A stretch of 58,283 bases of DNA from Nanobdellota archaeon (GTDB taxonomy: Archaea; Nanobdellota; Nanobdellia; Parvarchaeales; Parvarchaeaceae). A program made the translations under genes and the position numbers. The notes under the pieces are model-generated. The model did no database searches, was not told where the DNA came from, and worked only from the letters and a program-made list of their open reading frames with translations. This document shows positions 5,149-28,597 of this stretch, one piece after another. The first letter of the stretch is position 1, and every line of letters begins with the position of its first letter. The DNA is taken from contig JAJYRE010000019.1 in NCBI GenBank assembly GCA_021794235.1, forward strand, positions 1-58,283, given 5' to 3'.

Positions 5149-5169
5149 ATGTTTATTCTTTATAGTGGC

Positions 5170-5673
5170 ATGAAAGATGAAAATTATAAATTTTTTACCG
5201 GCGGTAAATCTAATGTTCTGGCCGTGCGGAGCGCAAGAAAGAACCTGGACAGCGTTTTGGACGATATAAAGTCGGGCGACATACAGGAGTCTTTCAGATT
5301 CCAACACGGGACATCGGATTACTTCAGAGAGATGGTGTTTCACAAGGCATCGGATCTTAGAGACTCGGGAAAGTTCCCCTTAGACAGGAAGACTTTCCAT
5401 GTCGGCCGTGCGCTGGATAACCAGATGATGTGGAGTGATGCACCTAAAGCCTTTTACTCCAGGCACATCTATGTAGAGCGGCCGCCATACCACCTGGGTG
5501 TGATATCAATAGGTGTAAAGGGAAACCGCGGCATTATTAGCTGCGCAGAGATTGACTATGCAAGAAATAAGATCCTAGTCGATTCTAGTTTCCTTAATAC
5601 AGCAAACTACGACAGAATAAAGGACGTAATAGTTGTTGCCAGCATGGTATACTCCGACAATGTAAGAGGCTAA
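5170..5673 (+). CDS. Conserved-looking protein of unknown function
   Basis: 167 aa, start chosen from the TATA spacing. Soluble and mixed alpha/beta in appearance, with no signal peptide or membrane segment. The middle part is rich in aromatic and charged residues (FRFQHGTSDYFREMVFHK), and HIYVERPPYHLGVISIGVKG looks like a beta hairpin leading into a core strand. I recognise no family. It precedes the pseudokinase-like gene by 77 bases on the same strand. A separate TTAAATTC element before the latter suggests separate promoters. Confidence 0.65.
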   Translation: MKDENYKFFTGGKSNVLAVRSARKNLDSVLDDIKSGDIQESFRFQHGTSDYFREMVFHKASDLRDSGKFPLDRKTFHVGRALDNQMMWSDAPKAFYSRHIYVERPPYHLGVISIGVKGNRGIISCAEIDYARNKILVDSSFLNTANYDRIKDVIVVASMVYSDNVRG

Positions 5674-5750
5674 TCCTATACACCAGGCAATGTATTTTAA
5701 AAGTATTTATACTATTATTTGTCTTAAATTCTAATTAAAAAAGAGTCCTT

Positions 5751-6605
5751 ATGAGTAAGAAAAAAATTGAAGATTTGATAAGTTCGGTAAAAAGCGTACA
5801 CACCAATGGAGGTGACGTTGCACTATACAAAGAGGCACTCGATAAAGTCCCTAACATCGATCATTACGGAGTCGTTATGGTAGATAGACTGGTGAATGAC
5901 AATTACCCGAACGGAAACAAAGCCGGTAGATTCCTATATAATGATCTTTATCACAGCGGGGTTTTCGACCTTCATTTTAAGCGTCAATATGATCTAGTCA
6001 AGACTATAAATTCGATAATACCTGAGAACTCACAAAAACCGATAGCTGTACTGCATAATTCTGCCGATAAATGCGTAGGATACCTGGTCTCCGAAGTTCA
6101 CGGAATGCCGTTGGACGTATATCTGGAGTCGGGAGAGCTCATGGACATGTTAGCGATAGAAAGAAGAATGCAGTCGGTTTCTAGGGTCGAGAGCTTCCTC
6201 AGCGAGTCCGAAGTCTATAATATCCTTGCAAAGAGGGAACCATCGTATCTGGCAAGAACTTTTGACGATATCAAGAAATACAAGATATCATCCCAGGTAT
6301 ACAACGAAAGGAGGGCGGAGCTCAGTCAGGTTCTGACTAACCTGCGGAAAAGCGTAAACACACTCCACGGAAAGAACATTCATCATAACAGGATATCCCC
6401 AAGTAACATAATCGTCGACTACGACGGCAGGGAAACACCTGCAGTTTACCTTATAAACCCCCTTAACGGCGTGGACGCAGAATCTACGGCTGATAAGGAC
6501 GTATCAGATATGAAAGCTGTTGAGAAATTGATACTAAGGGAAATAGAAAAATCAAATTCAAAGGCAAACAAATACGAAGCGAAGTTAAAGCATCTTATAA
6601 AGTAA
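5751..6605 (+). CDS. Protein-kinase-like fold protein, probable pseudokinase
   Basis: 284 aa, no signal peptide. Residues 78-120 (RQYDLVKTINSIIPENSQKP, then KCVGYLVSEVHGMPL) resemble the helix-C to hinge region of kinase-like and phosphotransferase folds. Residues 206-222 (HGKNIHHNRISPSNIIV) line up with the catalytic loop H-x-D-x4-N, but the Asp is Asn213 while Asn219 is kept. The DFG position reads INPLNG (235-240), again Asn for Asp. DVSDMKAVEKLI after it resembles helix F. Both catalytic aspartates are thus replaced, which argues for a regulatory or binding role. A related protein is encoded at 27926-28597. The family assignment rests on motif reading only. Confidence 0.5.
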   Translation: MSKKKIEDLISSVKSVHTNGGDVALYKEALDKVPNIDHYGVVMVDRLVNDNYPNGNKAGRFLYNDLYHSGVFDLHFKRQYDLVKTINSIIPENSQKPIAVLHNSADKCVGYLVSEVHGMPLDVYLESGELMDMLAIERRMQSVSRVESFLSESEVYNILAKREPSYLARTFDDIKKYKISSQVYNERRAELSQVLTNLRKSVNTLHGKNIHHNRISPSNIIVDYDGRETPAVYLINPLNGVDAESTADKDVSDMKAVEKLILREIEKSNSKANKYEAKLKHLIK

Positions 6606-27925: not shown

Positions 27926-28597
27926 TTATGTCCTGTATGACTTTCTCTCGTACTTCGAGTGTAGTTTCTCCAGATAGTTCGTTGTTTTCGTCAGATTTCT
28001 ATCCAGAACCTTTCCATTGCCATCGCAGAACGTCATATTCTGATTTGAATAGAACAATAGAATCTTTCCATTATCAGTGATGTACATATTATCTACGTCG
28101 AAAGTCCCAGTCGGTAGTTTATCGTACTGCCCATTCTTTTTCAGCGTGTCCTTTACAGCATCTAGCTGCGAAATAACGTCTTCAATGAGTTTCAGTTTGG
28201 ACAGTAACGAGTCCCTAGTCTTTTTACCATATCCCAGATGCAAAACTTCCCTTACGGGTTCGGCATTTTTTTCGTTTATAAGATATCCCCTGATATACCC
28301 TTTTTCCACCCCTTCGTCCAGTACCATACCTACCGGCTTCGAAGTATTCTCCGGAAGCATCTTGTTAATCTGTTTTAAGTTCTGGTACTCCTCCTTCATA
28401 TCCCTTGCTGGGAACGGGTTAAAAAGCGAACCAAATACACTTGGAGAGGTTATGGACAGGTATTGCGAAACGCGAGCATTGTAAGTCAGTTCGTCGATCA
28501 TTTTGTACGGGATGTCAGATAGGTTAAGATCCTTCATCCTAATGGCAATATCCTCGTTTATTATGCTATCAAGCCCTTTATCAGTTTTTTTCACCAT
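27926..28597 (-). CDS. Pseudokinase-like protein, paralogue of the gene at 5751
   Basis: 223 aa. EEYQNLKQINKMLPENTSKP (69-88) followed by KGYIRGYLI (99-107) aligns with RQYDLVKTINSIIPENSQKP and KCVGYLVSEV of the 5751 protein, including the P-E-N-x-x-K-P core. The catalytic-loop region reads LPTGTFDVDNMYI (161-173): the His and catalytic Asp are gone but the Asn is kept (N170). The DFG position reads YSN (183-185). It is shorter than a kinase domain, so large parts of the C-lobe are missing. Its start overlaps the end of the upstream membrane protein gene by 17 bases, indicating coupled translation. Confidence 0.5.
   Translation of the reverse strand: MVKKTDKGLDSIINEDIAIRMKDLNLSDIPYKMIDELTYNARVSQYLSITSPSVFGSLFNPFPARDMKEEYQNLKQINKMLPENTSKPVGMVLDEGVEKGYIRGYLINEKNAEPVREVLHLGYGKKTRDSLLSKLKLIEDVISQLDAVKDTLKKNGQYDKLPTGTFDVDNMYITDNGKILLFYSNQNMTFCDGNGKVLDRNLTKTTNYLEKLHSKYERKSYRT

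What the first reader, a model, noticed from the sequence alone, without database searches (positions are those of the whole stretch)
5751..6605. Kinase-like protein with both catalytic aspartates changed to Asn
The catalytic loop reads HHNRISPSN instead of H-x-D-x4-N, and the metal-binding DFG reads NPL. The fold features around it are kept. Such paired Asp-to-Asn changes suggest a dedicated pseudokinase, little known in archaea.
Basis: partly seen in the sequence, partly recalled or inferred. Interest (0 to 1): 0.6.

Follow-up and report, generated by a model that had tools for sequence, protein, structure and literature searches.

The report
Archaeal pseudokinase with Asn-swapped active site
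A gene in tiny acid-loving archaea makes a protein that looks like a kinase but has lost both of the acidic residues a kinase needs to work; related species keep it intact, so it probably acts by binding other molecules rather than by adding phosphate.

Summary
Confirmed. The ORF at 5751-6605 (+, 284 aa) is a kinase-fold protein. Its HRD-type Asp is Asn213 and its DFG-type Asp is Asn236; the catalytic-loop Asn219 is kept. AlphaFold2 gives a confident model (pLDDT 88.8) whose 50 best PDB matches all have a kinase-like fold, with JAK2/TYK2 pseudokinase domains on top, although the Foldseek E-values are weak. Ten full-length orthologues occur in 28 genomes of one genus (Ca. Parvarchaeota MAGs). 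Asn213 and Asn219 are invariant in all ten. Position 236 is Asn in eight, His in one, Asp in one. Fifty-two other kinase-like proteins of the genus keep HxD...N...D; profile alignment pairs their catalytic Asps with the two Asn (99.4%, E 1e-21). dN/dS of 0.06-0.12 argues against a decaying pseudogene. The gene has its own conserved TATA-like element and follows a conserved orphan gene (5149-5673). Three related genomes lack it, one with its promoter left behind, so it is dispensable. A second, independent pseudokinase clade is also in the window (27926-28597, minus). Best reading: a dedicated, lineage-specific pseudokinase acting by binding; partner unknown. Archaeal pseudokinases are rare but already reported, so this is a new family of a known kind.

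The parts
5751..6605 (+). Pseudokinase gene (family A, 284 aa). Hinge-like GY...G at residues 110-118; degenerate catalytic loop HHNRISPSN at 211-219; degenerate DFG 'INP' at 235-237; invariant N239, D242 and D250.
   Evidence: ORF; homologues; alignment; profile match to intact paralogues; AF2 model and Foldseek
6381..6407 (+). Degenerate catalytic loop H211-N219: Asp to Asn at N213 (codon 6387-6389); catalytic-loop N219 kept (codon 6405-6407)
6453..6461 (+). Degenerate DFG-position motif I235-N236-P237: Asp to Asn at N236 (codon 6456-6458)
5704..5711 (+). TATA-like element TATTTATA, 40 nt before the start codon; the same word at a similar place in 7 of 8 upstream regions read, and a similar promoter and leader left behind in G003 where the gene is deleted
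   Evidence: read directly from the upstream sequences
5149..5673 (+). Conserved neighbour 'cl5', 174 aa, no known family or fold match; immediately upstream on the same strand
27926..28597 (-). Second, separate pseudokinase (family B, 223 aa) of the same superfamily: catalytic loop reads LPTGTFDVDN and the DFG site FYS

Best explanation
The protein is a dedicated pseudokinase: a RIO/Kdo/Bud32-like small kinase, duplicated inside one DPANN archaeal genus, that lost its catalytic base (Asp to Asn213) and usually its main metal ligand (Asp to Asn236) and was then kept for a non-catalytic job. Shown: predicted fold, homology to intact kinases, conserved loss of both acids, purifying selection, a conserved promoter-like element of its own, and conserved adjacency to an orphan gene (cl5). 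Inferred: that it cannot transfer phosphate, and that it works by binding. The most likely mode is as a binding or allosteric partner either of the cl5 product or of one of the intact small kinases that the same genome encodes, possibly still holding a nucleotide in the kept hinge without metal.
For: AF2 model with pLDDT 88.8, pTM 0.85; the best 50 Foldseek PDB matches all have kinase-like folds, including JAK2/TYK2 JH2 pseudokinases, Bud32, LanKC and NleH. Profile-profile match to intact paralogues, 99.4%, E 1e-21, with both Asn on the two catalytic Asps. The combined profile finds 641 distinct PDB chain sequences at E<=0.01, and the 60 shown are kinases or kinase-domain proteins. N213 and N219 invariant in 10/10. 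dN/dS 0.06-0.12 on pairs with dS about 0.8-1.3. Family A is one clade, 98/94 support. 52 other examined members keep both Asps. TATA-like element conserved. cl5 adjacent in most genomes where both sides are readable.
Against: No biochemical data. Foldseek E-values are weak (best 3e-3, TM about 0.3). The second acid is not lost in every orthologue (Asp in L007). No partner was identified: cl5 has no fold or family match, and three related genomes keep cl5 without the pseudokinase, so cl5 cannot strictly depend on it.
Confidence: 0.68

Rival explanations
1. A still-catalytic atypical transferase: the kinase fold was re-purposed for another reaction (as in SelO AMPylation), or for weak phosphotransfer, with Asn219/Asn236 and the invariant Asp242 arranged as an alternative metal or base site.
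For: N219, N239 and D242 are invariant in 10/10, so the region is under constraint; kinase-fold proteins with other activities are known (SelO, SidJ; PMC10211241).
Against: Both standard acids are replaced by neutral residues in 9/10 or 10/10; the region of the beta-3 Lys, kept in at least 90% of the intact paralogues, reads [N/V/H]-[E/D/Q]-R in family A (alignment uncertain there). No specific match to SelO or similar families was found.
Confidence: 0.12
2. A decaying gene: a duplicate kinase losing function by drift, with the Asn changes as early damage.
For: Lineage-specific; absent in three related genomes that keep the neighbouring genes; one orthologue (G011) has a frameshift near the N terminus in its assembly.
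Against: dN/dS 0.06-0.12, intact open frames in nine of the ten orthologues, Asn at the same position in all ten and a conserved TATA-like element.
Confidence: 0.05
3. A mobile, host-interaction or defence gene: part of a fast-changing island of orphan genes (cl5, pseudokinase, cl19, cl10, cl14), perhaps a decoy or immunity-like factor.
For: The island gains and loses members between close relatives, its genes have no family match above cut-off, and the pseudokinase gives a match to part of the MkoA defence model (E 5.6e-6).
Against: No relative found in viral contigs; no other defence family match; the MkoA match covers only the kinase-core stretch (residues 148-234); flanking genes include housekeeping genes (SOD, AdoMet decarboxylase, PEP synthase).
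Confidence: 0.12

Closest known systems
RIO1 / Kdo (WaaP) / Bud32-type small atypical kinases
   Same: Intact paralogues in the same genus match RIO1 (PF01163, 8.8e-7), Kdo (PF06293) and archaeal Bud32 (TIGR03724, 4e-8) models and align to the pseudokinase over hinge, catalytic loop and metal motif.
   Different: The pseudokinase lacks the catalytic Asp in all orthologues and the metal Asp in most, has an inserted helical region between hinge and catalytic loop (about residues 128-180), and passes no Pfam or NCBIfam cut-off.
JAK2/TYK2 JH2 pseudokinase domains
   Same: Best structural matches. By general knowledge (not tested here), JH2 also carries HGN in place of HRD.
   Different: No sequence kinship beyond the fold; by general knowledge JH2 keeps the DFG-position Asp; it is a domain of a eukaryotic tyrosine kinase.
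Bacterial pseudokinases (EssB/YukC and the families reviewed in PMC12599244)
   Same: Prokaryotic pseudokinases with conserved loss of catalytic motifs.
   Different: Different lineage; EssB is a transmembrane secretion component; RIO and ABC1 are not mentioned in that review and archaea only in a reference title.
Family B pseudokinases of the same genus (window 27926-28597, minus)
   Same: Same superfamily and genus, catalytic residues lost.
   Different: A separate clade (100/100) in which the HxD motif is gone altogether and the metal-motif Asp is also lost.

Membership tests
Protein kinase-like (PKL) fold superfamily | Two-lobed kinase fold | tested here: met
   AF2 pLDDT 88.8; the 50 best PDB matches have kinase-like folds, though Foldseek E is only 3e-3 at best and TM about 0.3
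Protein kinase-like (PKL) fold superfamily | Sequence homology to intact kinases | tested here: met
   hhalign 99.4%, E 1e-21 to 18 intact paralogues, of which tested ones match kinase Pfam models
Active RIO/Kdo/Bud32-type kinase | Catalytic Asp in HxD | tested here: not met
   Asn in 10/10
Active RIO/Kdo/Bud32-type kinase | Catalytic-loop Asn | tested here: met
   N219 invariant 10/10
Active RIO/Kdo/Bud32-type kinase | Metal-binding Asp (DFG/IDP) | tested here: not met
   Asn in the window protein and 7 others, His in L003, Asp in L007
Active RIO/Kdo/Bud32-type kinase | Beta-3 Lys | tested here: inconclusive
   Near-invariant Lys in intact paralogues; family A has [E/D/Q]-R46 there, but the N-lobe is outside the hhalign match
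Pseudokinase | Conserved kinase-fold protein lacking one or more of the Lys, HRD-Asp and DFG-Asp | tested here: met
Pseudokinase | No phosphotransfer activity | not testable with these tools
   needs purified protein
SelO-type AMPylating pseudokinase | Sequence match to the SelO family | tested here: not met
   no SelO match in Pfam or NCBIfam

The most novel reading that the evidence does not exclude
An Asn-based active site: the kinase fold in this archaeal family has been rebuilt around N213, N219, N236, N239 and D242 to catalyse a transfer reaction other than phosphorylation, or to sense nucleotides without metal, acting on an equally orphan partner (cl5).
Probability: 0.08. Interest if true: 0.75.

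Novelty: new member of a known kind. Interest (0 to 1): 0.4.

Why it matters
Pseudokinases are well studied in eukaryotes, barely in bacteria and almost not at all in archaea. Here one genus of reduced-genome archaea has a lineage-specific kinase expansion with two separate pseudokinase clades and intact paralogues alongside. That gives a small natural system for asking how and why a kinase fold becomes non-catalytic. The family passes no cut-off in the domain libraries searched, so annotation pipelines would call it hypothetical.

Tried and rejected
Single-sequence Pfam, NCBIfam and PDB searches gave only weak kinase matches, so membership rests on profiles and structure. A single-sequence scan of genome contigs found nothing; the alignment scan worked and gave organism names. 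Viral origin: no relatives in viral contigs. A fold for the neighbour cl5: AF2 model of fair quality (pLDDT 81), no PDB match. Idea that the pseudokinase is the positional orthologue of the intact kinase next to the DEAD-box helicase gene in G016/G024/G012: not supported, because G011 carries both a family A member and a kinase of that clade, and the tree separates them. Idea of a strict cl5-pseudokinase operon: weakened by the pseudokinase's own TATA-like element and by genomes that keep only one of the two. The sigma-70-type promoter scan is not relevant for archaea.

Full report
Observation. The reading frame at 5751-6605 (+) is real, starts with ATG and encodes 284 aa. Its catalytic loop is HHNRISPSN (residues 211-219) and its metal motif INPL (235-238). 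Both Asn are AAC codons.

Is it a kinase fold? On its own the protein only grazes kinase models (Pkinase E 0.033; Bud32 0.0055; part of MkoA 5.6e-6). With relatives the case is strong. The ten-member family profile finds kinases in the PDB (best E 0.0035). The profile joined with the intact and family B paralogues finds 641 distinct chain sequences at E<=0.01, and the 60 shown are kinases or kinase-domain proteins. AlphaFold2 gives pLDDT 88.8 and pTM 0.85. The 50 best Foldseek matches all have kinase-like folds, JAK2/TYK2 JH2 pseudokinases on top, then MK2, LanKC, NleH, Bud32 and APH. The Foldseek E-values (3e-3 at best) and TM-scores (about 0.3) are modest, which I attribute (inference) to a reduced N-lobe, an inserted helical region after the hinge and a short C-lobe ending in one long helix (247-283).

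Are the two Asn real replacements? Profile-profile alignment with 18 intact paralogues (99.4%, E 1e-21) puts N213 on the Asp of HGD, N219 on the catalytic-loop Asn and N236 on the Asp of IDP. In the ten orthologues N213 and N219 are invariant. Position 236 is Asn in eight, His in L003 and Asp in L007. N239, D242 and D250 are also invariant. By contrast, the 18 aligned intact paralogues all keep H, D, N and D, and of 36 further kinase-like proteins fetched from the genus 34 keep both Asps, the other two being family B (counts made by reading the motifs, and including Bud32/RIO-type members). The beta-3 Lys of the intact paralogues may have become E/D/Q-R46 in family A, but the alignment is not secure there.

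Who has it? Ten full-length orthologues are found in 28 genomes of the genus, plus contig-end fragments in G001, and none with a full-length match in the other genera among 280 genomes sampled from the class. Record titles name them Ca. Parvarchaeota / Nanoarchaeota MAGs. The tree gives family A as one clade (98/94) and family B as another (100/100), with the intact kinases around them (deep branching is poorly resolved and the root is arbitrary). No relative was found in viral contigs.

Is it functional? For close pairs with dS about 0.8-1.3, dN/dS is 0.06-0.12, against 0.01-0.03 for the neighbouring superoxide dismutase gene: faster evolving than a housekeeping enzyme but clearly under purifying selection. 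A TATTTATA element lies 40 nt before the start codon in the window and recurs at a similar place in six of the seven other upstream regions read.

Neighbourhood. The gene follows an orphan gene, cl5 (5149-5673), on the same strand in most genomes where both sides are readable; in G002, G020 and G001 contig ends separate the pieces, and in G026 cl5 is a remnant. In several relatives orphan genes cl19, cl10 and cl14 follow downstream. In G003, G005 and G009 the neighbours (AdoMet decarboxylase, cl5, cl14, SOD) are in the same order but pseudokinase, cl19 and cl10 are missing. In G003 a stretch like the pseudokinase promoter and leader is still present in the gap, which points to loss rather than never having had the gene. 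The gene is therefore dispensable over evolutionary time. The cl5 product has no domain match and no fold match.

Interpretation. The evidence supports a dedicated pseudokinase. That it does no phosphotransfer is inferred from the missing base and metal ligand. That it acts by binding is inferred from conservation without catalytic residues and from precedent (JAK JH2, EssB and others, known from the literature). Which partner it binds is open; cl5 and the three intact paralogues of the same genome (C15:39423-40025, C15:46970-47602, C22:40482-41117) are the candidates.

Novelty. A review states that about 2% of archaeal proteomes contain pseudokinases and that seven of eight kinases in one haloarchaeon are pseudokinases (PMC10211241). 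A recent review of bacterial pseudokinase families does not mention RIO or ABC1 and names archaea only in a reference (PMC12599244). A search for phrases such as 'archaeal pseudokinase' returned no paper in the held library, and the Parvarchaeales genome paper does not treat these kinases in the passages read (PMC10134863). I therefore rate it a new family of a known kind, with moderate interest raised by the two parallel pseudokinase clades in one genus.

Noticed in passing
window 27926-28597 (-): A second pseudokinase (family B, 223 aa) of the same superfamily with the catalytic loop LPTGTFDVDN; nine members seen in the genus, forming their own clade in the tree.
   Followed up: partly
L160 693-2129 and L161 695-2131 (G008, G005): Tandem protein of 479 aa with two kinase-like halves; the first keeps HGDIHPSN, the second reads YGDLNDRK, so its catalytic-loop Asn is Lys.
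   Followed up: no
L146 10128-10336 (G003): A stretch like the pseudokinase's promoter and leader survives although the gene is gone: a likely relic of a deletion.
   Followed up: partly
L002 about 1420-1560 (G011): The closest orthologue (47% identity) has a frameshift near its N terminus, an assembly error or early damage.
   Followed up: no
L074 6493-7925: Orphan genes cl19, cl10 and cl14 follow the pseudokinase in several relatives and come and go between close relatives; no family match above cut-off.
   Followed up: partly
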